A program made the translations under genes and the position numbers. A DNA stretch of 64,000 nucleotides from Actinomadura alba (GTDB lineage Bacteria > Actinomycetota > Actinomycetes > Streptosporangiales > Streptosporangiaceae), in NCBI RefSeq assembly GCF_014323705.1, contig NZ_JABVEC010000012.1:1-64000 (forward strand), given 5' to 3'. The notes under the pieces are model-generated. The model was not told the origin of the DNA. It worked only from the letters and a program-made list of their open reading frames with translations, and ran no database searches. Positions 9,733 to 44,905 of this stretch are shown here, one piece after another. Position 1 is the stretch's first letter; every line of letters begins with the position of its first letter.

Positions 9733-10971
9733 TCACCCGAGGCGTACGGTCTCGATCCAGGACGGTGGGGCCGGCGGATCCGTCCCGACCAGTACGGCGA
9801 TGAGGCGGCTGGACGAAGGCTCCTCTGGCCACGGAGTGAAGCCGTCGGTGAGGACGATCACGACACCGGGCCGCTCCGGACCGGCAAGTGCCTCCCGGAT
9901 GCCGACCCGCAGGTCGGTTCCGCCGCCGCCCGCGAGTGAGATCTGCTCGGTGGAGGTCACCCGGGACACCGTCTGCACGTCGGCGTCGCAGGCCAGGACC
10001 GCGACCCGGTTCCCCCGTACGCCCACCTCCCGCAGCACGCCGGTGACCTCGGCAAGGACGGCCGCCAGATCGTCCTCGCCCATCGACGCGGACGTGTCGA
10101 TGACGATCGCGACCCGGGGAAGTGGGCGGCGCAGGCTCGGCAGCACGACACCGTTCAGCGCCGAGGTGCGGCGCGATGGGCGACGGTAGGTGTAGTCGAC
10201 CGCGCCCCCGGCCCAGGCGACCGCCTCCCGGACTGCGCCCGCGAGCACCCGCCGCCAGTCGACGGTCGGTTCGAGGACCTGGTCCGCCCAGCGCCGCCAC
10301 CCGGCCGGCAGATCACCGCGCGTGCGCTGATGGGCGCGCATCCCCTCGGCGGTGTGCCTGCGCAGTGCCTCGGCCTCGACCGGGCTGAGCCGGGCCGCCG
10401 GTCCGGCGCCGTCGGCCTCCCAGGGCGCCGGCCGCCCGTGGGCGCCGGAGCCGCAGTCGACGTCGGTGGCCTGGGGCGGCAGCAGCGGCAGATACTCCTC
10501 GAACAGCCGGCCCGCTGGCTGTCCGAAGGTGCCGGGCTCGACGCGGCCTTCGGGCAGTGCCAGTCCGTCGGCGAGCAGGTCGTCGTTGATCTCGCAGTCC
10601 TGGGCGATGTTGACGCGCAGGCGGTCGCCCTGCGCGGAGGCGGGAAGCCGGTCCGCGCGTCGGTGGTGGTCGCGCAGCAGGTGCGCCACCTCGTGAATCC
10701 ACACTCCCGCGAGTTCGGGTACGGGGGTCGCGTCGACGAATGCGGCTGACACGTAGCAGCGCCAGTGCCGGTCGACGCCCATCGTCGACACGCCGGTGCT
10801 CGGCACGATCGACAGCGAGTACAGCGCCGACGCCAGGTAGGGCCGATCGGCCGCGGCACGATACCGGGCGGCGAGCAGCTTGACCCGGTCCAGGGCGGTC
10901 CCCCCGTCCGGCCCGGCCGCGGCCTCCGAGGTGGCGCTCGTCCGTTCGCGTCCGCTCCGCCGCCCGGTCAT
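9733..10971 (-). CDS. Metallopeptidase-like plus VWA domain protein (DUF2201-like)
   Basis: A 412-residue two-domain protein. The N-terminal half has HEVAH (93-97), the zinc signature of metallopeptidases, followed by RVNIAQDCEINDD (119-131), which fits the predicted peptidase domain of DUF2201 proteins. The C-terminal half is a von Willebrand A fold with the metal-ion site IDTSASMG (about 288-296) and later TDG. Such proteins pair with MoxR ATPases, as here: the MoxR stop lies 3 bases upstream. Both predicted active sites are intact. Role in the pair (chaperone-like or regulated protease) is not established. Confidence 0.82.
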   Translation of the reverse strand: MTGRRSGRERTSATSEAAAGPDGGTALDRVKLLAARYRAAADRPYLASALYSLSIVPSTGVSTMGVDRHWRCYVSAAFVDATPVPELAGVWIHEVAHLLRDHHRRADRLPASAQGDRLRVNIAQDCEINDDLLADGLALPEGRVEPGTFGQPAGRLFEEYLPLLPPQATDVDCGSGAHGRPAPWEADGAGPAARLSPVEAEALRRHTAEGMRAHQRTRGDLPAGWRRWADQVLEPTVDWRRVLAGAVREAVAWAGGAVDYTYRRPSRRTSALNGVVLPSLRRPLPRVAIVIDTSASMGEDDLAAVLAEVTGVLREVGVRGNRVAVLACDADVQTVSRVTSTEQISLAGGGGTDLRVGIREALAGPERPGVVIVLTDGFTPWPEEPSSSRLIAVLVGTDPPAPPSWIETVRLG

Positions 10972-10974
10972 GCC

Positions 10975-12180
10975 TCAGCCGCCGCCGGGCAGCGCACCGG
11001 ACAGCCGGAGCAGGTCGAGGAAGGCGTCGATGCCGCTCGGCACCGGCCAGTCGGTGTTCCGCAGCGCCGCCAGGTCGGCGGCCGCCCGAGCCGCCACGTC
11101 GGGCACTCCCGCGTCGGCCGCCTTCCCCAGCACGACCCAGCCGGCCTCCCAGCGCCGCCGGGTGAGATCGCCCTGGACGGCGGCGACCACCGCGGTCAGA
11201 AAGGCGAGTTGCCGGTCGCCGCGCTCGGGCAGCGCGAAGGCGTTCGGATCGGCCAGCACCCGGTCCGGGTCGGGCAGATCGAGCTGTTCGAGGTAGGACA
11301 GCAGCTCGATTCCCGCGCCGTCCCCGATCGCGCCGATCACCGCGGTCGCGATCGCCTCGAGACCGGTGCCGGTGGCGTATCCGGCGGCGAGCAGCCGCAG
11401 CGCCATCTCCCAGGTCCGTGGCGACGGCCAGGCCCGGCCGCGGCTCTCGGCGTCCTCGGGCAGGTGGTGCGCCAGACCGGGCCGCGCGGTGAGGAAGCCG
11501 GAGACCACCCCGCGTGCCCGGGCCACCGCACTGGGCACCTTGGCGGGATCGACCGGGGGAACCGGCACCGACGGCCAGGTGCCGGCCATGCCGCGCGCGA
11601 CCGTACGCGGATCGTGGGTCCAGTGCAGATGGACGAACCTGTTCGCCAGGGGCGGGCTCAGGTGCCAGCCGTCCGCGGCGCTCGACGGCGGATTGGCGGC
11701 GGCGACCACCCGTACCGGCTCGGGCAGGGCCAGGCTGCCGACCCGGCGTTCGAGGACCACGCGGAGCAGGGCCGCCTGCACGGCGGGCGGTGCGGAGGAC
11801 AACTCGTCGAAGAACACCAGGCCGCGCCCGGCCCCGGCCAGCCGGACCGCCCAGTCCGGCGGGGCCATCGGCACACCCTGGGCCGCCGGGTCGTCACCGA
11901 GGATCGGCAGACCGGCGAAGTCGGACGGCTCGTGAACGCTGGCGATGACCGTCTCCAGGGGGACGCCGAGCCCGGCGGCCAACTGCTCCATGCCCGCGGA
12001 CTTGCCGATGCCGGGCTCGCCCCACAGCAGTACGGGCAGGTTCGCGGCCACCGCGAGCGCCAGCGCCTCGAGCTGCGGATTGCCGCCGGGCTCGGTCCGC
12101 CAGGCCCGGAGCCGCAGATTGAGATCGTCGGCGGCGGCCAGCGGGTCCTGGGATCGCGAAAGGTCATTGGTGGCGTTCAC
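10975..12180 (-). CDS. MoxR-family AAA+ ATPase
   Basis: A 401-residue AAA+ protein: Walker A GEPGIGKS (54-61), Walker B LVFFDE (121-126), sensor 1 region VVAAANPP and an arginine-finger-like LANRFVHL. MoxR ATPases act with VWA proteins in assembling, activating or remodelling other proteins. The GTG start at 12180 overlaps the upstream ankyrin gene stop (GTGA) and its stop is followed after 3 bases by the VWA gene, so the pair is translated as a unit. Confidence 0.88.
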   Translation of the reverse strand: MNATNDLSRSQDPLAAADDLNLRLRAWRTEPGGNPQLEALALAVAANLPVLLWGEPGIGKSAGMEQLAAGLGVPLETVIASVHEPSDFAGLPILGDDPAAQGVPMAPPDWAVRLAGAGRGLVFFDELSSAPPAVQAALLRVVLERRVGSLALPEPVRVVAAANPPSSAADGWHLSPPLANRFVHLHWTHDPRTVARGMAGTWPSVPVPPVDPAKVPSAVARARGVVSGFLTARPGLAHHLPEDAESRGRAWPSPRTWEMALRLLAAGYATGTGLEAIATAVIGAIGDGAGIELLSYLEQLDLPDPDRVLADPNAFALPERGDRQLAFLTAVVAAVQGDLTRRRWEAGWVVLGKAADAGVPDVAARAAADLAALRNTDWPVPSGIDAFLDLLRLSGALPGGG

Positions 12181-13958
12181 GCGTGCTCTTTCAGGAAGGC
12201 AGAGGCCGTGCAGAGATCGGGGTGGTCCCGCTCGAGCCTTTCTTCAAGGAAGCGCAGGTCACGGCGCTTGCCCCGGACGCTCAGGTAATGCACCGACAGG
12301 CCACTGTCAGGGTCGACGACGTCGATGCGGGCTCCGGCGGTGAGCAGTGCCCGGATGAGTTCCGCTGAGCCGTTTTCGCCGACGGCCACGTGCAACGGGG
12401 TGCGGTGGTCCTTGTCGGTGGCCTCGATGTCGAGCCCCGCCGCCAGGAGCCGGGGCAGCAGCGGTTCATGGTCGAGCAGATGCAAGAGATGAAGCAGGGT
12501 GCGTCGCCGGCCGTCGCGTGCGTGGGGGTCGACGCCCGCGTCAAGCAGCCGGATGACGCCCGGGGTGTCGCCGTGCTGGATGCGGGCGAACAGCTCCCGC
12601 CACTGGTCACGCAATGCTCTCGGGAGCCGCCCGATGCCGGAGGTCCAGGTTCGCTGGACGGCGAAGCATCCGCTGATCGTGCCGCCGAACGCCGACATCG
12701 CACGTTCGCGTTGCTCTTCTTCGTCGCCGTGCTGGGTGTGCAGGGTGCCGTCGCGGAAGGACATTTCGTGCCACTCGCCGCGGCAGCGGACGCGCACAGG
12801 AGAGGGCGGTTCGGCCTCGGGTGGTCCGACCGGACCGCCTGTGGCCGGCCGGTCTGGGAACAGGGCGTCCCGCACCAGCGGGTGCAGATGATCTGGTGAG
12901 ATCTGGCCGATCCGCAGCAGATCGAGGTCCGGCGACCGGCGCCAGCAGGCCTCGGGCAAAACGACGTCGGGGACCTCGTCGAGCTCGATGCACTGAGCCC
13001 GCAGGCCTCCATTTCGTCTCTTGCGTTCGAACAGCATGGCGATGCGCCAGCGCTCGAACGGATGGAGGAGGAAGCGGTCTCCGTGGCCTTCGTCGGCGAG
13101 CCGTTGGATCTCCGGTCCGAGTCGGGTCAGGGCCAGCGGCATCCTCTCGAGAGGTTCGAGCACCTGCACGGACCCGTATTCGAGGTCGGGAGCCAGTGGG
13201 TTCAGGTCGATGCCGGCGGCGGCGAAGGCGGCCTCGACTTCGCCCCGCTCGTGCAGTGCGGTGACCCATTCGGTTCGTGCTGCGGGGTCGGTGAGACCAG
13301 GGGCGGTGGTGGGGAGTTCGTCGGTTGCGCGCGGGGTGCCGTCGGGGTTGAGGAAGGGCGCACGGTCCGCGCCGCCGCCGCAACGCTCGCGCAGTTCGAT
13401 CGTGTGGCGCACGTCCCACAGATGCCGCGCCGCGGTCCAGTTCTCCACGGTGCCTGGCCAGAAGCGGCGGGACTCATCGACACGGGCGACCCGGCCGAAC
13501 CGCAGGGTCAGCCGTTGCGGTCCGTCCGGCATCCAGCCCGGCGTGGTGACGTAGAGCCGTGGAGTGTCCGGCCGACGACTTCGCCTCCCGCCGCCGTATC
13601 CGCCCAAGACCACCACCTGGTTGGGATTGATCGTCGTGCGTCCGTCTCCCAACCGGGGCAGGTGCCAGCGCAGCAGATCCGGTGCGAAATGGCGGAGGTC
13701 GTCTTCGAGTACGGTGACGATCTTCCTACCGTGTTCTCTGGCCACGTCGGCCAGGTCGAAGGCGATGTCGATGCCGGCCGCTCCACAGGCGCCCCGCCAG
13801 TCGCCGGCCAGCCGTCGTTCGGCGGCCTGCTCGATCATCCACTGAGGCACGGCATAACGCCGGATCCTCCGCCAGCGCGACGCCTCATCCGGCGGAAACG
13901 ACGTGGAGGGAGCCTGGAGCGGCGGTGCGGCGGCCGCTGGGGCGCTGATGGCGGTCAT
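12177..13958 (-). CDS. Ankyrin-repeat protein, copy 1
   Basis: A 593-residue protein with the same architecture as its upstream neighbour. The first 100 residues hold an unnamed conserved region (WRRIRRYAVPQWMIEQA near residue 30), the middle is variable and Trp-rich, and residues about 455-565 contain three to four ankyrin units (TPGVIRLLDAGVDPHARD; RTPLHVAVGENGSAELIRAL). No enzymatic motif seen. Start and stop overlap both neighbours by 4 bases. Ankyrin repeats bind proteins, so it may be a target-recognition or adaptor subunit for the MoxR/VWA pair; this is inference. Confidence 0.78.
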   Translation of the reverse strand: MTAISAPAAAAPPLQAPSTSFPPDEASRWRRIRRYAVPQWMIEQAAERRLAGDWRGACGAAGIDIAFDLADVAREHGRKIVTVLEDDLRHFAPDLLRWHLPRLGDGRTTINPNQVVVLGGYGGGRRSRRPDTPRLYVTTPGWMPDGPQRLTLRFGRVARVDESRRFWPGTVENWTAARHLWDVRHTIELRERCGGGADRAPFLNPDGTPRATDELPTTAPGLTDPAARTEWVTALHERGEVEAAFAAAGIDLNPLAPDLEYGSVQVLEPLERMPLALTRLGPEIQRLADEGHGDRFLLHPFERWRIAMLFERKRRNGGLRAQCIELDEVPDVVLPEACWRRSPDLDLLRIGQISPDHLHPLVRDALFPDRPATGGPVGPPEAEPPSPVRVRCRGEWHEMSFRDGTLHTQHGDEEEQRERAMSAFGGTISGCFAVQRTWTSGIGRLPRALRDQWRELFARIQHGDTPGVIRLLDAGVDPHARDGRRRTLLHLLHLLDHEPLLPRLLAAGLDIEATDKDHRTPLHVAVGENGSAELIRALLTAGARIDVVDPDSGLSVHYLSVRGKRRDLRFLEERLERDHPDLCTASAFLKEHA

Positions 13959-15748
13959 TCCTCTTCAGCGAGTTCGGGGTGTTCGCGCTCGATCCGTTCC
14001 GTGAGGCAGTCCAGATCTGTGCGTTGGCTCCAGTCGATCAGCCGGTAGAGGGACATGCCCTCGCCGTGGATCTCACCGGTCACGTCGATGCGCGCTCCGG
14101 CGGCGAGCAGTGCCCGGACGAGGGCAACGGAACCGCGCTCACAGATGGCCACGAACAGCGGGGTGCGCTGTTCCTGGTCTCCGGCGTCGATGTCGAGGCC
14201 CGCCGCGAGGAGTCGTGGCAGCAGTGGCTCGTGGTCGAGCAGATGCAGTGCGTGGAGCAGGGTGCGCTGCCGGCCGCCGCGTACGTGAGGGTCGATGCCC
14301 GCGTCCAGGAGCCGCAGGACCCCCGGGGTGTCGCCGTGCTGGATCCGGTCGAACAGCTCCCGTCGCTGGTGGCGCAGTGACTTCGGCAGCCGGCCGGTCC
14401 CGGACGTCCATGCCTGCTGCACGGCGAAGCATCCGGCGACGGCGCCGCCGAGGGCCCGCATCGCGTGTTCGCGTTGTTGTTCCTCGTCGGTGTGCGGCAG
14501 GTGGAGGGCGCCGTCGCGGGAGGACACCTCGTGCCATTCGCCTCGGCAGCGGACGCGTACGGAAGAGGGGGGCTCGACGTCGGGCGGCCCGACCGGGCCT
14601 TCGGCGGCCGGACGGCCGGGGAACAGGGCGTCGCGAACCAGCGGGTGCAAATGCTCTGGAGGCGTACGGCCGTCGCGCAGCAGATCGAGGTCGGGCAGCC
14701 GCCGCCAGCAGGCCTCGGGCAGCACCTCCGCGTTCTCCGGATCCGAGCCCATCTCGTACTTGACGACCTCGACCCGCAGACCCGCATCGGACCCGGCGCT
14801 TTCGAGTACGACGGCCGTGTACTGAGTGCAGGGGATCCAGAATCGGTCCCAGATGTTCTCGTCGGCGAGTCGCCGGATCTCCGGTTCGAGCCGGGTCAGG
14901 GCCAATGGCATCCGGCTGAGGAATTCGAGCGGCTCCACCCTCTTCACGCTGTACCAGGGGTCGAGGTCGAACGGCGACGCGTCCAGTTCGATGCCTGCGG
15001 CGGCGAAGGCCGCTTCGACCTCGCCCCTCTCGTGCAGGGTGGTGACCCATTCGGTGTGCGTCGCGGGATCGCCCGGACCCGGGTCGGTGCCGGGGAGCTG
15101 ATCGACGGTGCGCGGGGTGCCGTCGGAGTTGTAGAACGGTGCTCGGGTCTTGTTGCCGCCGCAGCGTTCGAGCAGCTCGGAAGCGTGTCGTGCATCCCAC
15201 AGATGCCGAGACGCGGCCCAGGTCTGCACGACATTGCGCCAGAACGCGCAGAACGACCAGTCGGTCTCGAGGGAGACCCAACTGCGATCGATCGGGGCAA
15301 AGTTCAGCCTCAGTCGCTGAGGGCCGTTGACCATCCACGCGGGCGTGGCGACGGACAGCTGCGGAGCACCCTTCCGCCAAGGGCCTCCTGCCGGCCGGCC
15401 CAGGACCACCTGCTGGCTGGGGGTGATAGTGGTGCGTCCGCGTTCCGCCACCCGGGGCAGATGCCAGCGCAGCAGATCCGGCGCGAAGTGGCGCAGATCG
15501 TCCTCTAGCGCGGCCGTGACCTCCCCGCCATGCTCGCGGGACACGTCGGCCAGGTCGAACGCCACATCGACGCCGGCCGCAGCGCAGGCGCCCCGCCAGT
15601 CACCGGCCAGCCGCCGTTCGGTGGCCTGCTCGATCATCCATCCGGGCACGGCGTAGCGCCGGATCCGCCGCCAGCTCGACGCCTCCTCCGGAGGGAAGGA
15701 TCTGGACCGGACACGGGGCGGCGGAACGGCCGGTGTGCCGGTGCTCAC
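13955..15748 (-). CDS. Ankyrin-repeat protein, copy 2
   Basis: A 597-residue paralogue lying directly upstream of copy 1; the two align over their full length by eye, including the N-terminal WRRIRRYAVPGWMIEQA block and the C-terminal ankyrin units (TPGVLRLLDAGIDPHVRGG; RTPLFVAICERGSVALVRAL). They differ most in a mid-protein segment (about 150-300) and in the last 40 residues. GTG start overlapping the LRR gene stop; stop overlapping copy 1 (ATGA). The tandem duplication with divergence suggests two adaptors with different partners. Confidence 0.78.
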   Translation of the reverse strand: MSTGTPAVPPPRVRSRSFPPEEASSWRRIRRYAVPGWMIEQATERRLAGDWRGACAAAGVDVAFDLADVSREHGGEVTAALEDDLRHFAPDLLRWHLPRVAERGRTTITPSQQVVLGRPAGGPWRKGAPQLSVATPAWMVNGPQRLRLNFAPIDRSWVSLETDWSFCAFWRNVVQTWAASRHLWDARHASELLERCGGNKTRAPFYNSDGTPRTVDQLPGTDPGPGDPATHTEWVTTLHERGEVEAAFAAAGIELDASPFDLDPWYSVKRVEPLEFLSRMPLALTRLEPEIRRLADENIWDRFWIPCTQYTAVVLESAGSDAGLRVEVVKYEMGSDPENAEVLPEACWRRLPDLDLLRDGRTPPEHLHPLVRDALFPGRPAAEGPVGPPDVEPPSSVRVRCRGEWHEVSSRDGALHLPHTDEEQQREHAMRALGGAVAGCFAVQQAWTSGTGRLPKSLRHQRRELFDRIQHGDTPGVLRLLDAGIDPHVRGGRQRTLLHALHLLDHEPLLPRLLAAGLDIDAGDQEQRTPLFVAICERGSVALVRALLAAGARIDVTGEIHGEGMSLYRLIDWSQRTDLDCLTERIEREHPELAEEE

Positions 15749-16878
15749 CGGTACAGGCTTCCGATCGCGTGGACGTCGGGATGGGTCCGGGCGGCCGGGC
15801 GCAGCCGCGGGGCGAGCGCCCGCTTCACCCGACGGGGCACCCCCGGGCCGAGACCCACGTACTCCAGGCGCGTGTCGGCGGTGACCCCGGCCAGCAGGGT
15901 CTTCGCGCCGCGTCCGGTGAGCCCGGTGTGGCGCAGTTCCAGCCGGCGCAGCGGGCTGCCGGGCAGTGCGGCGGCCAGCAGGGTCGCCCCCGCGTCACCG
16001 GTGACGTTGGGGGGTGCGCCGAGGGTGCGCTCGGACGGTGGCCGGCCCAGATCGAGGGCCTCGATGCCGTCGAGGGCCTCGGCCAGGGCCCGTGCCCCTT
16101 CCGGCCCGATGCCGTTGCCGCCGAGACCGAGACGTACTGGCCGGGCCGGGTCGGCCGCCGCGGCGAGCGCCGCCGCGCCGGCGTCACCGAGATGGTTGGC
16201 GGGAAGGTACAGCTCCCGGACGCCCGCGTCCCGGATCAGCGCGGTCAGCAGGCCGGCCGAGTCCGCGCCGAGCCCGTTGCCGCCGAGGAAGAGCCGTTCG
16301 ACCGGCCGGGACCGCTCGGCGAGCACGGTCAGCAGCGCCCGCAGACCCTCGGCGGTGAGCCCGGTGTTGACCAGATCGAGCGTACGGATCACCCGGTTGC
16401 GGCGCAGCATGGCGGCCAGCGCGCCGACCCCGGCGTCGCCCACGGGGTTGCGCTTGAGCCAGAGGGCGTGGACGGTGTCGTCGCCGGCCAGCCGACCGGC
16501 GAGCGCCGTGGCCCCGTCCGGCCCGATGCGATTGCAGCCCAGGTACAGCGTCTCCAGGCCGTGCCCGGGGGCCAATGCCTCGGCGATGCTCCGGGCACCG
16601 GCGTCACCGATGGCGTTGGTGCCGAGCAGCAGGTGGACGGCGTGCGGCGAGGCGGCGGCCACCGGCAGCAGCCTGGCCACGCCCGCCGGGCCGAGGCCCT
16701 GCTTGCAGAGGTCGATCCGCCCGTCCGGCCGTACGGTGCCGAGGGGGAAGGGCTCATCGGCCTCGACCGGATCCGGGAGGGCCAGCCGGGCGAGCAGCGG
16801 CTCCAGATGCGCTGGATCGGCGAGCGGCAGGTCGGGATGCTCGATCGCCGGGCAGCGTACGGGGGTCGGCTCCATCAT
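15745..16878 (-). CDS. Leucine-rich-repeat protein
   Basis: About 377 residues from an ATG at 16878 whose A overlaps the SDR stop (TGATG); an ATG two codons earlier (16884) is equally possible. From about residue 55 the sequence is built of roughly 28-residue repeats of the ribonuclease-inhibitor type, for example LETLYLGCNRIGPDGATALA and VERLFLGGNGLGADSAGLL, about ten units in all. The N-terminal 50 residues are non-repetitive. No catalytic motif. A protein-binding scaffold within the six-gene operon. Confidence 0.78.
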   Translation of the reverse strand: MMEPTPVRCPAIEHPDLPLADPAHLEPLLARLALPDPVEADEPFPLGTVRPDGRIDLCKQGLGPAGVARLLPVAAASPHAVHLLLGTNAIGDAGARSIAEALAPGHGLETLYLGCNRIGPDGATALAGRLAGDDTVHALWLKRNPVGDAGVGALAAMLRRNRVIRTLDLVNTGLTAEGLRALLTVLAERSRPVERLFLGGNGLGADSAGLLTALIRDAGVRELYLPANHLGDAGAAALAAAADPARPVRLGLGGNGIGPEGARALAEALDGIEALDLGRPPSERTLGAPPNVTGDAGATLLAAALPGSPLRRLELRHTGLTGRGAKTLLAGVTADTRLEYVGLGPGVPRRVKRALAPRLRPAARTHPDVHAIGSLYR

Positions 16879-18509
16879 CACCATTCCACCGGTCGGTAGT
16901 CCTTCAGGAACAGGCCGGACATCCGCTCTCCGCCGATGCCCCGCACGATCGGGTCGTAGACGCGGGCGGCCCCGTCGATGACGTCCAGCGGCGGGCGGAA
17001 GCCCGCCTCCCGCTGCACCGTCTTGTCCGGGTGGGGCCGTTCGTCGGTCACCCAGCCGGTGTCCACGCTGTTCATGTGGATGCCGGAGGCCGCGAAGTCT
17101 GCGGCCGCCGTGCGGGTCATCATGTTCAGTGACGCCTTCGCCATGTTCGTGTGCGGATGCCGGACGGTCTTGTTCTCGCGAGAGAAGCTGCCCTCCATCG
17201 CCGAGACCTGCACCACGTACCGGTCCGGCCACGGCGACGCCTCCAGCAGGCCGCGCAGCCTGGAGGTGAGCAGGAAGGGCGCGAAGGAGTTCACCATCTG
17301 GACCTCCAGCCACTCGGCGGGATCCACCTCGTGGAGTCGCAGGCTCCAGCTGTTGCGGGCCCGCAGATCCAGCGGCTGACCGGTCTCGTCGGTCCGGCCG
17401 GCCGGGAACAACACCTCCCACGCGGAGTCCCTGGCCGAGGTCACCGTACCGTCGGTGACCGGTTTCTCTGGCGTGGCGCCGTCCAGCGCGCTTGGCCCGG
17501 ACACCGGCCCGGACATCAGGTGCGGGGGCACGGGCGTGAAGGGACCGGGGCCGCTCGCTTCCAGAGATGACGGTGCGGGGTCGGTCAGCATGCACGCGCC
17601 GCCGGTGACCGTCACCCGTGCGGCGGTGCCCGTCAGGGGCAGCTTTTCGGCGGCCCGGACCTCCCGGTGAAAGGCAGCGGGGCGGCGAATCGTCTGCGCG
17701 GCGTTGTTGATGAGGATGTCGAGGTGGTCGAAGCGCCGATGGACGGAGCCCAGGAGTTCCGCGACCCCGGGCAGGTCGAGGAGATCGACGCCGTGAACGT
17801 GCAGTCGCCTCAGCCAGTCCGCCGAGTCCGGGACGGCGGCGAACCGGCGGGCCGCGTCGCGCGGGAAACGCGTGGTGACGATGACCTCGGCACCGTCGCG
17901 CAGCAGCTTCAACGCCACCTGAAAGCCGATCTTCACCCGGCCGCCGGTAACGAGGGCGCGACGTCCGCGCAGGTCACAGCGGGCGTACCGACGGACCTGG
18001 TTCTCCTCGGCACAGTCCACGCAGAGCAGGTGATACTCGGAATGCATCTCGCGGTAGGGGGCCTTGCAGACATAGCACCGCCGAGCGCCCACCAGTCGGC
18101 GCCGGACCTTCACGGACGCGTCGCCGGCCTCGTCCGGAGCCCGGCCGCCCACCGTGGCGGGGGATGCGCCGGCCGGCGTCAGATCGGGAGCAAGACTGAA
18201 ATCGGGGTCCTGAGCCGGTGTCGGCGCCGGTTCAGGCCCGGGATCCGGCTGTCGGTAGCGCGTGGAGGCCGCGCTGCTCTCGATGTCACGCCGTCTGCGG
18301 TCCGCGTGCCGGGCGGCCTTCCGCGACTTCTTGGCCGCCCGATGGACCTGCGCGACCGCTTGGTGCACCGCCCTCCAGCGGGGATCGTCCGGGTCCGTCG
18401 CCTGGACCTGTGCCAGGACTCGCAGGCAGATGTCGACCTCGGCCGGGTCAGGAGCGGCCGCTTTCCCGATCGACCGCGCCCCATCCGGGTCCGAGATGGT
18501 CGACGGCAC
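16878..18509 (-). CDS. Zinc-ribbon SDR-like protein with altered catalytic tetrad
   Basis: A 543-residue protein and first gene of the operon. Residues 1-135 are charged and low complexity; Cys145, Cys148, Cys163 and Cys166 form a zinc ribbon (CYVC ... CVDC). Residues from about 180 are a short-chain dehydrogenase fold: cofactor loop TGGRVKIG (188-195), INNAAQ (268-273) and Ser436 in VSAMEG. The usual Tyr-x-x-x-Lys is Thr454-x-x-x-Lys458 (HTNMAKASLN), so the catalytic Tyr is missing. An insertion of about 100 residues lies between the Rossmann core and the substrate region. It may bind NAD(P) or a nucleotide as a sensor rather than catalyse; this is inference. Confidence 0.75.
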   Translation of the reverse strand: MPSTISDPDGARSIGKAAAPDPAEVDICLRVLAQVQATDPDDPRWRAVHQAVAQVHRAAKKSRKAARHADRRRRDIESSAASTRYRQPDPGPEPAPTPAQDPDFSLAPDLTPAGASPATVGGRAPDEAGDASVKVRRRLVGARRCYVCKAPYREMHSEYHLLCVDCAEENQVRRYARCDLRGRRALVTGGRVKIGFQVALKLLRDGAEVIVTTRFPRDAARRFAAVPDSADWLRRLHVHGVDLLDLPGVAELLGSVHRRFDHLDILINNAAQTIRRPAAFHREVRAAEKLPLTGTAARVTVTGGACMLTDPAPSSLEASGPGPFTPVPPHLMSGPVSGPSALDGATPEKPVTDGTVTSARDSAWEVLFPAGRTDETGQPLDLRARNSWSLRLHEVDPAEWLEVQMVNSFAPFLLTSRLRGLLEASPWPDRYVVQVSAMEGSFSRENKTVRHPHTNMAKASLNMMTRTAAADFAASGIHMNSVDTGWVTDERPHPDKTVQREAGFRPPLDVIDGAARVYDPIVRGIGGERMSGLFLKDYRPVEW

Positions 18510-18540: not shown

Positions 18541-18615
18541 TGGCAAGGCTGGTCGGATTCGAACCGACGTCCTCCAGCCCGCTGTAAGGCGCGACGACCT
18601 CTGCGCTACAGCCTT
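18541..18615 (-). tRNA. Degenerate tRNA-like sequence
   Basis: Read on the minus strand it has a 7-bp acceptor stem (AAGGCTG/CAGCCTT), an encoded CCA end, a D stem GCGC/GCGC and a perfect T arm (GTCGG, TTCGAAT, CCGAC). The anticodon arm does not fold: only about 20 bases separate the D and T stems and no 5-bp stem with a 7-base loop forms, so no anticodon can be read. The acceptor pairing also extends 3 bp further if CCA is ignored. Either a tRNA damaged by a small deletion or an unusual tRNA-like RNA. Confidence 0.5.
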
Positions 18616-19119
18616 GCCGCGCGACAATCTAGCGAAGACTCACGATGAGTCGCACGAAAACATGATCGTTTCCTCCGGCCGAACCGGTGCGGCAGGTCGC
18701 CCGGGCTCGAGCCTCCAAGGGCTCATTGACCGGCGCACCATCGCCACCCAGGGAGCCGAGGTCTCCGCGGACTTCAGCACGGTCGGGGTTGATGACGTTC
18801 TGGCGGAGGTGTACTGCTTGGGTTCCAGGCGGGCTGGTCACTGGCGAGAATTGGGAAACGGATGGACGTCAACGACATGACGGTACGGGGCCGCCTGGTC
18901 GAGCGAGGGGTGCAGATGCGGGACCAGCAGCGGAAGCGATGACCCCCTTACCGCTGGACGCAAGCTACCCCTTGCCAGACCAACTGCCGACCAAGATCAC
19001 CGGCTGCCCGTCAGCCCCAGCCCACGTCCGTTGTCGGTGCTGGGCAAGGCTGGGGTCGCTGGTGGCGTCGCGTCCTGAACCAGCTGGTGTGGAGCAAGGA
19101 GCGCCGTTAGGGTTCGCCC
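18616..19119. other. Intergenic region, no convincing gene
   Basis: About 500 bases with only short frames. A 26-codon frame at 18862-18942 ends in basic residues but has no good ribosome site. Nothing further recognised. Confidence 0.35.
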
Positions 19120-39984: not shown

Positions 39985-40057
39985 GCGGACGTGGCTCAGC
40001 TGGTAGAGCATCACCTTGCCAAGGTGAGGGTCGCGGGTTCGAATCCCGTCGTCCGCT
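39985..40057 (+). tRNA. tRNA-Gly (anticodon GCC)
   Basis: Full cloverleaf: acceptor GCGGACG/CGTCCGC, anticodon loop TTGCCAA, T arm CGGG-TTCGAAT-CCCG. First of three clustered tRNA genes. Confidence 0.95.
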
Positions 40058-40087
40058 CGGAGAGGCCGAGCAGTGCGGCCTCGCGCT

Positions 40088-40158
40088 GGTGGAGTGGCCG
40101 AGAGGCGAGGCAACGGCCTGCAAAGCCGTGTACACGGGTTCAAATCCCGTCTCCACCT
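40088..40158 (+). tRNA. tRNA-Cys (anticodon GCA)
   Basis: Acceptor GGTGGAG/CTCCACC, anticodon loop CTGCAAA between ACGGC and GCCGT, T arm ACGGG-TTCAAAT-CCCGT. Confidence 0.95.
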
Positions 40159-40175
40159 CGACCGCTGTCAGTCTC

Positions 40176-40247
40176 GGGCGATTAGCTCAGTGGGAGAGCG
40201 CTACCTTGACACGGTAGAGGCCACTGGTTCAATCCCAGTATCGCCCA
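40176..40247 (+). tRNA. tRNA-Val (anticodon GAC), integration target
   Basis: Acceptor GGGCGAT/ATCGCCC, anticodon arm CTACC-TTGACAC-GGTAG, T arm CTGG-TTCAATC-CCAG. Its 3' two-thirds are duplicated at 59049-59095, marking it as the attachment site of the integrative element that starts here. Confidence 0.95.
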
Positions 40248-40248
40248 C
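40202..40248 (+). repeat. Left attachment site copy (attL)
   Basis: The 3' 46 bases of tRNA-Val(GAC) plus one base. The same 47 bases occur at 59049-59095 in the same orientation with one difference (C here, T there, in the variable loop). An integrase gene begins 64 bases to the right. Confidence 0.9.
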
Positions 40249-40265
40249 ACGTTTCCCCAGGTCAG

Positions 40266-40298
40266 AACCCGGCCCGCCATGAAGGGCGGCCGGGTTTT
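40266..40298. terminator. Terminator between tRNA-Val and integrase
   Basis: A near-perfect 13-bp stem (AACCCGGCC side at 40266, CCGGGTT side ending 40296) followed by TTTT. Serves the tRNA operon and possibly the convergent integrase. Confidence 0.65.
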
Positions 40299-40311
40299 GA
40301 TCGTTTGACCG

Positions 40312-41694
40312 TTATTTGACCGTGGCCGATGTCCCGACATCACGGAGTATCCGGATGCCGGCTCGGGTGCGGTGGAAGGCGGTCAGGGCGGTGTCGTCGG
40401 CGTCGGGCAGGGTGTGCAGGTAGCGTTCGGTGGCCCGCAGCCCGGCGTGGCCGAGGCGTTCTCTTACGGTCTGCAGGTCCGCTCCCCCGGCCAGCAGCCA
40501 GGAGGCGTGCGCGTGCCGCAGATCCCGTACCCGCACACGCCGTCCGATCCCAGCGGCCTGGACTGCGGGGTCCCAGATGCGCTGGCGGAACCAGTCGCGG
40601 GGGATGTGCCCGTCGGTGTCCAACCTCCGCCCGGCCCGCGGCTGGTCCTTGCCGGCTGCGCGGCGCACGGCCCGATAGCGGGCGTACGCGGCCCGGCACC
40701 ACGAGCAGCGGCAGCGGCCCATCGAATACCCGGACAGGGTTCCATGGCGGTACCGGCGCCCTGCCGCATTGGGAGCCGTGGCTCCGGCAGGATCGGGCAG
40801 CTCCAGCAACCGCCGCTCCGTCGGCCGCCGGGATTGGGGCGCTGTGAACAGCAGATCATCGCTACCGAGCCCACGTTCCGCGGCATAGGCTCTGATGCGG
40901 GCGACAAGAGTGCTGCTGAGTTTGATCCGGCGGAACTCCCGGCTCTTCGGATAGCCCTTGACCAGGAACCGCGCCCCGGACGGGTGGTAGCCCGGCCGCA
41001 GCTCCACGACCGTGCGCGCCACGGTGAGCATCCGCGTCACCGGATCGAGATCACCCAGGCGGAGCTCGGTCAGCTCGCCCCAGCGCAGCCCGCCTTCGAG
41101 GGCGGTCTCGGCCAGCAGCCGTGACTGCTCATCCGGCAACGCCTCAACGATTGCCTCGAACTCCGCCGGGCTCACGATGGTCAGCGGTTTGGCCACCACC
41201 GGAGGTACCGCCACCCCACGGCAGGGATGCAGGGCGATCACTTGATCGTTGAGCGCGGTAGTGAAAATCGAACTCAGCACCGTCTTGCACCGCTGCACCA
41301 TCATCGCTGACTTACCGGCATCGGTGAGCCGGCGCAGGAAGTCCCGCACGTGCGAGGGCAGGATCTCGATCATCCGGATCGCCCCGAACTCCGGCAACAG
41401 GTACTTCTCAATCACCGAGATGTAGCCCTGACGTGTGTTGGCCTCCATCCGATGATTGGCCAGCCACACTAGTGAGACGTAGCGAGCGAAGGGCTGCCGA
41501 CCACTGCGAAGATCAGCAAACCGCCCCTCCCCCGCACCGGCTTCCGCACGCCGCCACGCCCGGACGGCCTCTTTCCTCGTCGCGAACGTGCCCGCCGAGC
41601 GCTCCCGGCCGCGCACGTCCCAGAAATACGCGGTGTACCTCGGACTCCCGTCCTTACGCAACCGTGTTCGTACGTAACCCATGGTCACCATCAC
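40312..41694 (-). CDS. int: Tyrosine recombinase / element integrase
   Basis: A 460-residue integrase transcribed toward the attachment site. Catalytic residues: Arg in LEGGLRWGELTELR (about 207), LRHAHASWLL (Arg 393), His416 in RERLGHAG and Tyr425 in ATERYLHTLPD; the box-II His position is Arg (RVRDLRH). Between the catalytic halves is an insertion of about 55 residues with a Cys cluster (GRCRCSWCRAAYARYRAVRR), possibly metal-binding. It should integrate and excise the 18.9-kb element at tRNA-Val(GAC). ATG 41694 or 41682 may be the true start. No excisionase gene is evident next to it. Confidence 0.88.
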   Translation of the reverse strand: MMVTMGYVRTRLRKDGSPRYTAYFWDVRGRERSAGTFATRKEAVRAWRRAEAGAGEGRFADLRSGRQPFARYVSLVWLANHRMEANTRQGYISVIEKYLLPEFGAIRMIEILPSHVRDFLRRLTDAGKSAMMVQRCKTVLSSIFTTALNDQVIALHPCRGVAVPPVVAKPLTIVSPAEFEAIVEALPDEQSRLLAETALEGGLRWGELTELRLGDLDPVTRMLTVARTVVELRPGYHPSGARFLVKGYPKSREFRRIKLSSTLVARIRAYAAERGLGSDDLLFTAPQSRRPTERRLLELPDPAGATAPNAAGRRYRHGTLSGYSMGRCRCSWCRAAYARYRAVRRAAGKDQPRAGRRLDTDGHIPRDWFRQRIWDPAVQAAGIGRRVRVRDLRHAHASWLLAGGADLQTVRERLGHAGLRATERYLHTLPDADDTALTAFHRTRAGIRILRDVGTSATVK

Positions 41695-42304: not shown

Positions 42305-43988
42305 GAGGTCGTGGTTGGACGAGGGGCTGACGGAGGTCGTTGAGCGGGGTGTGCTGACAGCATCGGGAGAGGCATGGGCGGTCGCGGTGCGGCGGGCCGA
42401 GGTGATCGGACCGTTGGCGCTGCGGGCGCGGGTCGGTGTGGACGCGGCGGATGCCGCCGCCGCTCAGCTGGGTATTTCTCGGCGGCAGGTGTATGCGCTG
42501 CTGCGCCGGTGGCGACAGGGCGAGGGCGTGGTTACGGACCTGCTGCCCGGGACCTCCAGCGGCGGGCGCGGCTGGAGCCGGTTGCCGGATGAGGTGGAGG
42601 CACTGCTGGCCGAGGTCGTCGGGTTGCGCTATCTGAGCAGGCAGCGCCGGTCGGTGGCGGCGGTCTACCGCGAGGTGGTGCGGCAGTGCCGCATGCGGGG
42701 GCTGGCTGTCCCGGCCCGGAACACGCTTGTACGGCGGATTGAAGGGCTGGACCCGGCGGCGGTCGTCTCGGCGCGGGAGGGCGCGGACCGGGTTCGTGCA
42801 CTGCGGTCGGCGGGCGGGCAGCCGCCGGTGATCGAGGGCCTGCTGGAACAGGTGCAGATGGATCACACGGTGGTCGATCTGGAGGTGGTGGACGATCGGT
42901 TCCGCCGGCCGATCGGACGGCCCTATGTCACCGCAGCGATCGACGTCGCGTCGCGGTGCGTGGTCGGGCTGGTCGTCACGCTGGAGCCGCCCTCGGCGTT
43001 GTCGGTGGGGCTGTGCCTGGTGCACACGGCGACCGACAAGCGGGCCTGGTTGGAACGCCTCGGGGTGCAGGCGGTCTGGCCGATGAGCGGCAAGCCGCGC
43101 ATGATCCACGTGGACAACGCGGCGGAGTTCAAGAGCGAGGCGTTGCGGCGGGGCTGTGACCAGCACGGGATCGCGCTGGAGTACCGGCCCTTGGGGCTGC
43201 CGCACTTCGGCGGGATCATCGAGCGGTTGATCGGCACGATGATGGAGATGGTACATGAGCTGCCCGGCACTACCTTCTCCAACCCGGCCGAGCGCGGCGA
43301 TTACGACAGCCAGGCGTCCGCGGTGCTGACCGTCGCCGAGTTGAACAAGTGGCTGGCCTTGGCGGTGGCGTCCTACCACGGGCAGGTGCACGGCACGTTG
43401 AAGCAGACCCCGGCCGGGCGGTGGGAGCAGGGCGTCGCCGAGTCCGGCCGTCCGGCCACGGTGGCCGGCGAGACGGCGTTCCTGGTCGACTTCCTGCCGG
43501 TGATTCGCCGCACCCTGACCCGGACCGGGTTCACGATCGACCATGTCCAGTACTTCAGCGACGCGCTCAAACCGTGGATCGCCCGCCGCGACCGGCTGGA
43601 GAAGTTTGTGCTGCGCCGCGACCCGCGCGACATCTCCCGGATCTGGGCTCTGGATCCGGATGGGGACGCCTACGTGCAGGTGCCGTACCGAACACTGTCG
43701 CGGCCGCCGATCAGTGTGTGGGAGCAGCGCGCCGCGGTCGCCCGGTTGCGTGAGCAGGGCCGCGACCAGGTCGATGAGCACGCGCTGTTCGCGATGGTGG
43801 AGCAGATGCGGCAGATCACCGACACCGCGGCCGCCACCACCCGCAAGGCGCGGCGTCAGGTCCAGCGCCGATCGACGACCCGGGACCGCGCGGCATCAGC
43901 GCCGACACCACCACCACCGCCGCCCTGCCAGGAGGACCGGGCGGCCGGAGCAGCGGCACAGCCGTTCGAGGTGATCGAGCAGTGGTGA
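42303..43988 (+). CDS. tniA: TniA-like DDE transposase
   Basis: About 561 residues if GTG 42303 is the start (42261 also possible; no strong ribosome site). N-terminal helix-turn-helix (AAQLGISRRQVYALLRRW), DDE core with Asp in VQMDHTVVDLEV, Asp in MIHVDNAAEF and Glu in GGIIERLIGTMMEM, then a Mu-type C-terminal beta-barrel (LDPDGDAYVQVPYRTL). Matches TniA/TnsB transposases that cut and join transposon ends. Overlaps the ATPase gene by 7 bases. Confidence 0.88.
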   Translation: MRSWLDEGLTEVVERGVLTASGEAWAVAVRRAEVIGPLALRARVGVDAADAAAAQLGISRRQVYALLRRWRQGEGVVTDLLPGTSSGGRGWSRLPDEVEALLAEVVGLRYLSRQRRSVAAVYREVVRQCRMRGLAVPARNTLVRRIEGLDPAAVVSAREGADRVRALRSAGGQPPVIEGLLEQVQMDHTVVDLEVVDDRFRRPIGRPYVTAAIDVASRCVVGLVVTLEPPSALSVGLCLVHTATDKRAWLERLGVQAVWPMSGKPRMIHVDNAAEFKSEALRRGCDQHGIALEYRPLGLPHFGGIIERLIGTMMEMVHELPGTTFSNPAERGDYDSQASAVLTVAELNKWLALAVASYHGQVHGTLKQTPAGRWEQGVAESGRPATVAGETAFLVDFLPVIRRTLTRTGFTIDHVQYFSDALKPWIARRDRLEKFVLRRDPRDISRIWALDPDGDAYVQVPYRTLSRPPISVWEQRAAVARLREQGRDQVDEHALFAMVEQMRQITDTAAATTRKARRQVQRRSTTRDRAASAPTPPPPPPCQEDRAAGAAAQPFEVIEQW

Positions 43989-44905
43989 CCGGAGAGCTGG
44001 AGGTCGGCGACCCGGAGGATCTGTCGCACCTGCACGAGGGGGTCCGGAACGTGGCGCGGCTGCCCGCGGCCGAGCGGCTGGCCTACGTGCGGGCGGACCG
44101 GTGGATCGGTTACACCCGCGCCACTCGCGCCATCACCCGGCTGGAGGAGCTGCTGGCCTGGCCGGAAAAGCAGCGGATGCCGAACCTGCTGCTGATCGGC
44201 CCGACCAACAACGGCAAGTCGATGATCGTGGAGAAGTTCCGCCGCACTCACCCGCCGATCTCGCACCCTGATCGGGAGGAGATCCCGGTCCTGGTCGTCC
44301 AGATGCCGTCGGATCCGAGGGTGGCGCGCTTCTACACCGCGCTGCTGACCGCGCTCGGGGCGCCGCTGCGGCCGCGGCAAGCACTGCCGGTGCTGGAGCA
44401 GCTGACGCTGCGGCTGTTGCGCGAGACGGGCGTGCGGGCGCTGGTGATCGATGAGCTGCACAATGCGCTGGCCGGACGCGGTGAGGCCCGCCGCGAGTTC
44501 CTCAACTTGCTGCGGTTCCTGGGCAACGAGCTGCGCATCCCGCTGGTGGGCGTCGGCACCCGGGAGGCCTACCTGGCCGTCCGCTCCGACGACCAGCTGG
44601 AGAACCGGTTTGCTCCCTTCGTGCTGCCGCGCTGGGAGCCCGGCACCGAGGCCGGCGCGCTGCTGGCCAGTTTCGCCGCGGCGTTCCCGCTGCGTCGCCG
44701 CTCCCACCTGGCCACCCCGGAGACGGCCGAGTACTTGCTGGCCCGCAGCGAGGGCACCATCGGGGAACTGGCCGCGCTGCTCACCGACGCCGCCGTCGCG
44801 GCGATCGAGTCCGGCGAAGAGGCGATCAACCAGCGCACCCTGCTCATGGCGGACTACGCCGGGCCGACCGAACGACGACGCCTGTTCGAACGCGAACTGG
44901 CATGA
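43982..44905 (+). CDS. tniB: TniB-like transposition ATPase
   Basis: A 307-residue AAA+ protein: Walker A GPTNNGKS, Walker B VIDELHN, sensor region VGVGTREAY. Related to TniB and TnsC, which select targets and recruit the transposase. GTG start overlapping tniA, stop overlapping tniQ by 4 bases. Confidence 0.88.
   Translation: MVTGELEVGDPEDLSHLHEGVRNVARLPAAERLAYVRADRWIGYTRATRAITRLEELLAWPEKQRMPNLLLIGPTNNGKSMIVEKFRRTHPPISHPDREEIPVLVVQMPSDPRVARFYTALLTALGAPLRPRQALPVLEQLTLRLLRETGVRALVIDELHNALAGRGEARREFLNLLRFLGNELRIPLVGVGTREAYLAVRSDDQLENRFAPFVLPRWEPGTEAGALLASFAAAFPLRRRSHLATPETAEYLLARSEGTIGELAALLTDAAVAAIESGEEAINQRTLLMADYAGPTERRRLFERELA

What the first reader, a model, noticed from the sequence alone, without database searches (positions are those of the whole stretch)
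9733..18509. Six-gene coupled operon: zinc-ribbon SDR, LRR, two ankyrin proteins, MoxR, metallopeptidase-VWA
Seen: six minus-strand genes whose stops and starts overlap or lie within 3 bases, so they are made together. They combine a nucleotide-binding SDR-like protein, three repeat proteins of two recognition types, an AAA+ motor and a protein with intact HExxH and VWA metal sites. Established: MoxR and VWA proteins act as pairs, and MoxR-VWA sets with extra components have been proposed as NTP-dependent conflict or quality-control systems. Inference: the repeat proteins choose clients, the MoxR/VWA pair remodels or cleaves them, and the SDR-like subunit senses a nucleotide. I do not recall this exact combination being described.
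Basis: partly seen in the sequence, partly recalled or inferred. Interest (0 to 1): 0.78.

Follow-up and report, generated by a model that had tools for sequence, protein, structure and literature searches.

The report
tRNA-mimic RNA heads LRR–ankyrin–protease operon

Summary
The six coupled genes are present as described and are a recurrent unit: SDR–LRR–ankyrin–MoxR–metallopeptidase/VWA in Streptosporangiaceae and Catellatospora, and the same without the SDR in a large genus taken to be Streptomyces. Tests show it belongs to the system. It was found 5' of 69 of 73 LRR loci and of 35 of 38 held-out LRR loci, but of only 7 of 87 SDR loci without the LRR. A whole-genome pattern search of 151 genomes gave 31 matches, all at SDR/LRR loci or their remnants. 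A −10 box lies about 8 nt before its first base in most loci. Its cloverleaf is supported by covariation. Its body is nearly invariant, whereas anticodon positions 34–35 change several times faster while position 36 stays C. Arrays of up to six occur. The SDR lacks the catalytic Tyr and has been lost in the inferred Streptomyces, while RNA, LRR, ankyrin, MoxR and VWA remain. Likeliest role: an RNA bait or RNA-gated switch for a MoxR–metallopeptidase effector, probably in conflict. Anatomy is near certain; mechanism is inferred. I found no published description.

The parts
18626..18631 (-). -10 promoter box TAGATT, 8 nt before the first base of the tRNA-like RNA
   Evidence: TAnnnT at this place in 69 of 73 loci against 1.8% of random positions; sequence
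18543..18617 (-). tRNA-like RNA gene: 9-bp acceptor stem, D, anticodon and T arms; ARAGORN calls 18541-18615 tRNA-Cys(aca)
   Evidence: Rfam tRNA 41.4 bits; covariation; only copy in this genome
18581..18583 (-). variable triplet of the anticodon arm (AGC here); last base C is kept in 115 of 134 distinct elements
16878..18509 (-). zinc-ribbon SDR-like protein (543 aa); Cys4 ribbon at residues 145-166; catalytic Tyr replaced by Thr
15745..16878 (-). ribonuclease-inhibitor-type LRR protein (377 aa), the protein most strictly tied to the tRNA-like RNA
13955..15748 (-). ankyrin protein B (597 aa): about 450-residue N-terminal region without known relatives plus C-terminal ankyrin repeats
12177..13958 (-). 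ankyrin protein A (593 aa), 64% identical to B
   Evidence: (model pLDDT 89)
10975..12180 (-). MoxR-type AAA+ ATPase (401 aa), Walker A GEPGIGKS, Walker B FFDEL
9733..10971 (-). DUF2201 metallopeptidase (HEVAHLLRDHH) joined to a VWA domain (DTSAS)

Best explanation
The locus is a ribonucleoprotein system. Shown: one or more tRNA-like RNAs, apparently starting at the transcription start, head an operon for an RI-type LRR protein, a fast-evolving ankyrin protein, a MoxR ATPase and a metallopeptidase-VWA protein, often with a catalytically altered SDR. Inferred: the LRR (with the SDR where present) binds the invariant L-shaped body of the tRNA-like RNA and shows its anticodon loop as bait. The RNA has an intact elbow and loop, but its acceptor end does not look chargeable. 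A toxin, phage or stress factor that cleaves or binds anticodon loops hits the bait; the damaged RNA releases or reshapes the complex; the ankyrin protein relays this to the MoxR ring, which switches on the metallopeptidase-VWA effector. Fast change of positions 34-35 would track changing attackers, while C36-purine37 keeps a CpA/CpG step and avoids the usual hypermodified base 37.
For: RNA and LRR are inherited together: 69/73 LRR loci against 7/87 SDR-only loci, held-out 35/38, all 31 pattern matches in 151 genomes at SDR/LRR loci or remnants, and retained after SDR loss. Covariation: 90.8% of cells paired, 18 of 22 pairs with changes on both sides, 0 of 500 shuffles as high. Promoter at a fixed distance. 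Anticodon positions 34-35: 18 of 93 recent substitutions in 2 of 82 columns, binomial P about 1e-11; position 36: none. Not ordinary Ala tRNAs: G3:U70 in only 2 of 26 Ala-type elements, no consistent 3' CCA. LRR closest to ribonuclease inhibitor, E 2.5e-42. MoxR, peptidase and VWA motifs intact.
Against: No expression, binding, cleavage or phenotype data. The commonest triplet in the inferred Streptomyces (ATC, A34) is not a normal bacterial anticodon, and its loop is short, so it may not mimic any real tRNA. The window has one RNA but two ankyrin genes; RNA and ankyrin numbers correlate only loosely (rho 0.52). Anticodons within one array are not more distinct than chance (24/28 against 22.4 expected). 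The cyanobacterial locus L049 has RNA, SDR and LRR but no MoxR-VWA within 10 kb. No PADLOC defence family was hit beyond weak ankyrin and AAA matches.
Confidence: 0.38

Rival explanations
1. The tRNA-like RNA is a 5' leader element that controls its own operon: a tRNA mimic bound by an operon protein (as in repressor autoregulation) or a processing or translation signal, with no sensing of attackers.
For: It starts at +1 and lies a few tens of bases before the first ORF. In L134 copies also lie between operon genes, and in L278-L280 one heads a separate ankyrin gene.
Against: A plain regulatory element would not need arrays of three to six or fast change confined to the anticodon.
Confidence: 0.22
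2. An RNA antitoxin like type III toxin-antitoxin: the tRNA-like units bind and hold off the effector, and loss of the RNA frees it.
For: Same layout as type III systems (RNA repeats first, protein after, one promoter); type III features as in PMC8860590. Several units per locus in some genomes.
Against: No ToxN-like endoribonuclease; the units are tRNA-like cloverleaves, not pseudoknot repeats; most loci have only one.
Confidence: 0.15
3. They are working but specialised tRNAs that feed small or acidic amino acids (Ala, Gly, Asp, Glu, Val) to a tRNA-dependent transferase or to translation.
For: Most triplets read GNN codons; full cloverleaf and T-loop.
Against: Acceptor stem often 9 bp, discriminator and CCA not conserved, Ala identity pair absent; A34 triplets; some anticodon arms without a proper stem; no transferase domain found.
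Confidence: 0.1
4. One reading: repeat proteins choose protein clients for a MoxR-VWA machine and the RNA is irrelevant.
For: Operon and catalytic motifs are real.
Against: Strict RNA-LRR linkage, including when the SDR is lost.
Confidence: 0.06
5. The tRNA-like gene is a passenger, for example an integration site or a decayed host tRNA.
For: In G066 the operon lies in an island bounded by a duplicated ordinary tRNA cluster.
Against: That cluster is a different set of tRNAs. The tRNA-like is inside the transcription unit, keeps compensatory pairs, recurs in independent loci and degrades when the LRR is lost.
Confidence: 0.02

Closest known systems
Salmonella rsr-yrlBA-rtcBA RNA repair operon (Rsr/Ro60 with tRNA-mimicking Y RNA; PMC7790460)
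   Same: A tRNA-like noncoding RNA encoded with proteins in a system that responds to broken tRNAs; the paper raises the idea that the tRNA-like domain competes for an anticodon nuclease. Ro60 carries a VWA-like domain (own knowledge).
   Different: No RtcB, RtcA, RtcR or TROVE/Ro60 domain here; here LRR, ankyrin, MoxR and metallopeptidase; no fast-changing anticodon is described for Y RNA.
MoxR-vWA NTP-dependent conflict systems (Kaur et al. 2020, PMC7159879)
   Same: MoxR AAA+ with a VWA protein in an operon with extra parts, in multicellular bacteria.
   Different: bpMoxR model below cut-off; that paper's main text has no DUF2201 or ankyrin, and tRNA appears only in its reference list.
MoxR with DUF2201 metallopeptidase-VWA pairs
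   Same: The effector gene matches DUF2201_N and DUF2201 above cut-off next to an AAA+ gene.
   Different: The pair is only one module of this locus; partner RNA and repeat proteins are extra.
Type III toxin-antitoxin (ToxIN, CptIN)
   Same: RNA units first, protein second, one promoter.
   Different: tRNA fold instead of pseudoknots; no ToxN nuclease; several proteins.
Allo-tRNAs with 8/4 or 9/3 acceptor branches (Soell laboratory; recalled, paper not held; review PMC7609411)
   Same: Longer acceptor stem, odd anticodons.
   Different: T-stem stays 5 bp here (total 14 bp); always beside the LRR; anticodon changes fast.
Mammalian ribonuclease inhibitor
   Same: LRR type; best PDB match of the LRR.
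   Different: Sequence similarity only; no RNase partner known here.

Membership tests
Ordinary elongator tRNA | Cloverleaf with T-loop TTCRANY and D-loop GG | tested here: met
   Rfam tRNA 41.4 bits; T arm 99.7% and whole structure 90.8% paired
Ordinary elongator tRNA | 7-bp acceptor, conserved discriminator and CCA | tested here: inconclusive
   Two extra outer pairs form in 48/63 and 40/63 elements, in GC-GC, UG-CA and other versions; 3' letters vary
Ordinary elongator tRNA | Identity element of the amino acid named by the anticodon (G3:U70 for Ala) | tested here: not met
   2 of 26 Ala-type elements
Ordinary elongator tRNA | Aminoacylated and used by ribosomes | not testable with these tools
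   needs an experiment
MoxR-vWA ternary conflict system (Kaur 2020) | MoxR of the bpMoxR type with a VMAP or beta-propeller partner | tested here: not met
   bpMoxR 19.9 bits against cut-off 27; no such partner domain in the six proteins
MoxR-vWA ternary conflict system (Kaur 2020) | AAA+ and VWA genes in one operon | tested here: met
Ro60/Rsr-Y RNA system | TROVE-domain Ro60 protein | tested here: not met
   no TROVE match in Pfam
Ro60/Rsr-Y RNA system | tRNA-like noncoding RNA encoded with the proteins | tested here: met
Type III toxin-antitoxin | ToxN/AbiQ-fold endoribonuclease | tested here: not met
   no such match in Pfam, NCBIfam or PADLOC
Type III toxin-antitoxin | RNA units upstream of the protein under one promoter | tested here: met
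   layout and promoter position from sequence; co-transcription itself not measured
Classical SDR enzyme | Catalytic YxxxK | tested here: not met
   Thr at the Tyr position in 30/30 aligned; HPHTNMAK in 65/67
Classical SDR enzyme | TGxxxGxG cofactor motif | tested here: not met
   TGGRxKIG in 63/67: the middle Gly is Lys
DUF2201 metallopeptidase-VWA | HExxH and MIDAS DxSxS with both Pfam domains | tested here: met
Known anti-phage defence system | Match to a PADLOC family across the protein | tested here: not met
   only weak ankyrin-region and AAA-region matches

The most novel reading that the evidence does not exclude
A bacterial immune system that guards the translation machinery with encoded tRNA baits: the RNA's anticodon diversifies under attack by anticodon-targeting nucleases, and bait damage triggers a MoxR-driven metallopeptidase through RI-type LRR and ankyrin proteins.
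Probability: 0.3. Interest if true: 0.95.

Novelty: categorically new. Interest (0 to 1): 0.86.

Why it matters
A tRNA-shaped RNA with a nearly frozen body and a fast-changing anticodon, inherited with a ribonuclease-inhibitor-like protein and an AAA+-driven protease, fits no described system that I found. If it is a bait sensor, bacteria would watch for attack on tRNAs with sacrificial mimics, and it would become directly testable what most often attacks actinobacterial tRNAs. Even if the role differs, it is an unreported RNA family in at least a hundred genomes that annotation pipelines will list as ordinary tRNAs of the wrong identity.

Tried and rejected
Phage, plasmid and viral collections as carriers: no LRR operon on plasmids or phages; only SDR relatives on four plasmids and a cyanobacterial SDR-LRR pair on one viral contig. 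Rfam for a known leader family: only tRNA. PADLOC: nothing useful. Distinctness of anticodons within arrays: a first count double-counted copies; the corrected test shows no excess over chance. One RNA per ankyrin gene: loose correlation only. Solved-structure match for the ankyrin N-terminal region: none, only DARPin-like hits to the repeats. Wider search of the phylum: 2 of 396 genomes, so the system is patchy and concentrated in two groups. Literature searches for the combination, and for tRNA bait or decoy systems, gave no match; the library lacks most subscription journals.

Full report
CHECK OF THE OBSERVATION. The six minus-strand ORFs are at the stated coordinates with overlaps of 1-4 bases or a gap of 3 bases. 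Pfam supports every label: adh_short for the SDR, LRR_6, Ank_2 in both ankyrin proteins, AAA_5 (and AAA_3 at its cut-off) for MoxR, DUF2201_N plus DUF2201 for the last gene. Neither NCBIfam nor PADLOC names the system.

WHAT WAS MISSED. ARAGORN calls a tRNA-Cys(aca) at 18541-18615 on the minus strand, ending 31 nt before the SDR start; Rfam tRNA scores 41.4 bits. Read as a 9-bp acceptor stem it spans 18543-18617. In relatives the ARAGORN labels in this place differ widely (Arg, Trp, Phe, Ala, Ser, Glu, Cys, Gly), but the body is almost the same sequence everywhere and only the anticodon arm differs.

CONSERVED UNIT. In the family of the window's genome (Streptosporangiaceae, inferred because contig G033:C80 has the same length as Herbidospora galbida NZ_SZQA01000066.1) the order RNA-SDR-LRR-ANK-MoxR-VWA recurs in many genera and in Catellatospora. 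In a genus of at least 296 species, taken to be Streptomyces from genome size and species number, 43 of 296 genomes have the LRR. Type A there (25 loci) has RNA-LRR-ANK-MoxR-VWA without the SDR in 24 of 25. The spacer keeps a scar of the SDR 3' end (GACCGGTGGAGTGGTGATGAC) in 24 of 25, so the SDR was lost and the RNA kept. Type B has one to three RNAs, SDR, LRR and a convergent AAA+/DUF2201 pair. A cyanobacterium (L049) has two tRNA-like genes, SDR and LRR; Candidatus Parabeggiatoa (L042) has two tRNA-like genes and the SDR; Chitinophaga (L101) has SDR-LRR without a tRNA-like gene.

STRENGTH OF THE LINK. A tRNA-like gene lies 5' of 44/48 SDR+LRR loci and 25/25 LRR-only loci but 7/87 SDR-only loci. 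Of those seven, two are ordinary tRNA-Leu genes about 950 nt away and four lost the LRR, one of them with a broken T arm. A 58-base pattern searched over 151 whole genomes gave 31 matches in 20 genomes, all at SDR/LRR loci; the one apparent orphan precedes a truncated LRR. The window's genome has one copy. On 38 LRR loci not used before, 35 have the RNA; of the three misses, L299 and L303 lie near contig ends and L302 is unexplained; 28 of the 38 have the full LRR-ANK-MoxR-VWA set. Arrays of three, four and six units occur (L295-L298). In L278-L280 a tRNA-like RNA also heads a separate ankyrin gene, and in L134 units lie between operon genes.

RNA ANATOMY. On 63 non-redundant elements, 90.8% of cells pair and 18 of 22 pairs change on both sides; no shuffle out of 500 reaches this and slid structures give 32-46%. 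Two pairs outside the normal 7-bp acceptor form in 48 and 40 of 63. A -10 box TAnnnT lies 4-18 nt, mostly 7-10, before the first base in 69 of 73 loci; random positions give 1.8%. So the RNA probably starts at or next to +1 and would not need RNase P for its 5' end (inference). Single-sequence folding gives the cloverleaf with the 9-bp stem for the cyanobacterial element and the 9-bp stem and T arm for the window's.

THE ANTICODON. Among 134 distinct elements position 36 is C in 115, followed mostly by A or G; the triplets are mainly Ala, Gly, Asp and Glu type (GNN codons). Between nearest relatives, positions 34-35 take 18 of 93 substitutions in 2 of 82 columns (binomial P about 1e-11), position 36 none, and the D arm 1 (first seen). 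In one genus (g34) L121 and L137 differ at a single base, in the triplet (AGC or ATC), and L135 adds TTC with one compensated acceptor pair. Caveats: sequences are related, the alignment of odd arms is approximate, and the rate comparison does not model constraint. G3:U70 is found in 2 of 26 Ala-type elements and the 3' end has no steady CCA, so charging is unlikely but untested.

PROTEINS. LRR: 75-82% identical within type A and most like ribonuclease inhibitor in the PDB. SDR: Cys4 ribbon in 67/67, Thr for the catalytic Tyr, Lys in the Gly motif; so probably not an ordinary dehydrogenase (inference). Ankyrin protein: about 53% identical, the fastest-changing protein of the operon core; the model is confident (pLDDT 89) but only its repeats find solved structures. 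MoxR and VWA: median identity 83% and 75%, motifs intact.

MECHANISM. Shown: linkage, structure, promoter position, triplet change, SDR loss. Inferred: LRR binds the RNA body; the exposed anticodon loop is bait; damage or capture signals through ankyrin to MoxR and the metallopeptidase. The frozen LRR and frozen RNA body fit a binding pair; the two fast-changing parts are the triplet and the ankyrin protein. Ankyrin and RNA copy numbers rise together only loosely (rho 0.52, not corrected for kinship), and anticodons within arrays are no more distinct than chance. The A34 triplets of type A are not normal bacterial anticodons (own knowledge), which is the main difficulty for a strict tRNA-mimic bait. 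An RNA antitoxin or a leader control element remain serious rivals.

COMPARISON. The nearest described analogue is the Salmonella RNA repair operon with tRNA-like YrlA RNA, induced by tRNA halves (PMC7790460); its proteins differ. The MoxR-vWA conflict systems of Kaur et al. 2020 share the motor-VWA theme only (PMC7159879). I found no paper that describes this combination, within an open-licence library only.

VERDICT. Anatomy: about 0.95. Bait or RNA-gated effector mechanism: about 0.38.

Noticed in passing
L129 (G066), about 12.4 kb between flanks: The operon lies between two copies of a 447-bp segment (98.9% identical) that holds an ordinary tRNA Gly-Cys-Val cluster, which suggests a mobile island inserted at that cluster.
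   Followed up: partly
window 39985-41694: An ordinary tRNA Gly-Cys-Val cluster with an integrase-like ORF (40312-41694, minus) beside it, the same type of cluster that bounds the island in G066; a TniB-like ATPase ORF lies at 43982-44905 (labels by eye).
   Followed up: no
L220-L233 type-B loci, e.g. L225:8577-8655: A separate Trp(CCA)-type tRNA-like gene lies just before the DUF2201-VWA gene on the opposite strand in most type-B loci, with a similar body.
   Followed up: partly
L194-L218, 20-40 nt upstream of the -10 box: A recurring motif near AACTGGTGATCGA or AACTGGTGTGCGA upstream of the promoter in type-A loci, perhaps a -35 element or operator.
   Followed up: no
L138 (G000:C43:27007-28458): A second zinc-ribbon SDR in the window's own genome, without LRR or tRNA-like RNA nearby.
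   Followed up: no
L043-L118: The zinc-ribbon SDR family without LRR is widespread (Actinobacteria, Cyanobacteria, Verrucomicrobia, Planctomycetes, Gammaproteobacteria, Bacteroidetes); its function is unknown and the catalytic Tyr is missing in all members aligned.
   Followed up: partly
L165, viral contig IMGVR_UViG_2687453458: A cyanobacterial-type SDR-LRR pair at the end of a contig classed as viral, cut off before the place where a tRNA-like gene would be.
   Followed up: partly
L297/L305 and L296/L304: Arrays of six and four tRNA-like units before the LRR together with several consecutive ankyrin genes.
   Followed up: partly
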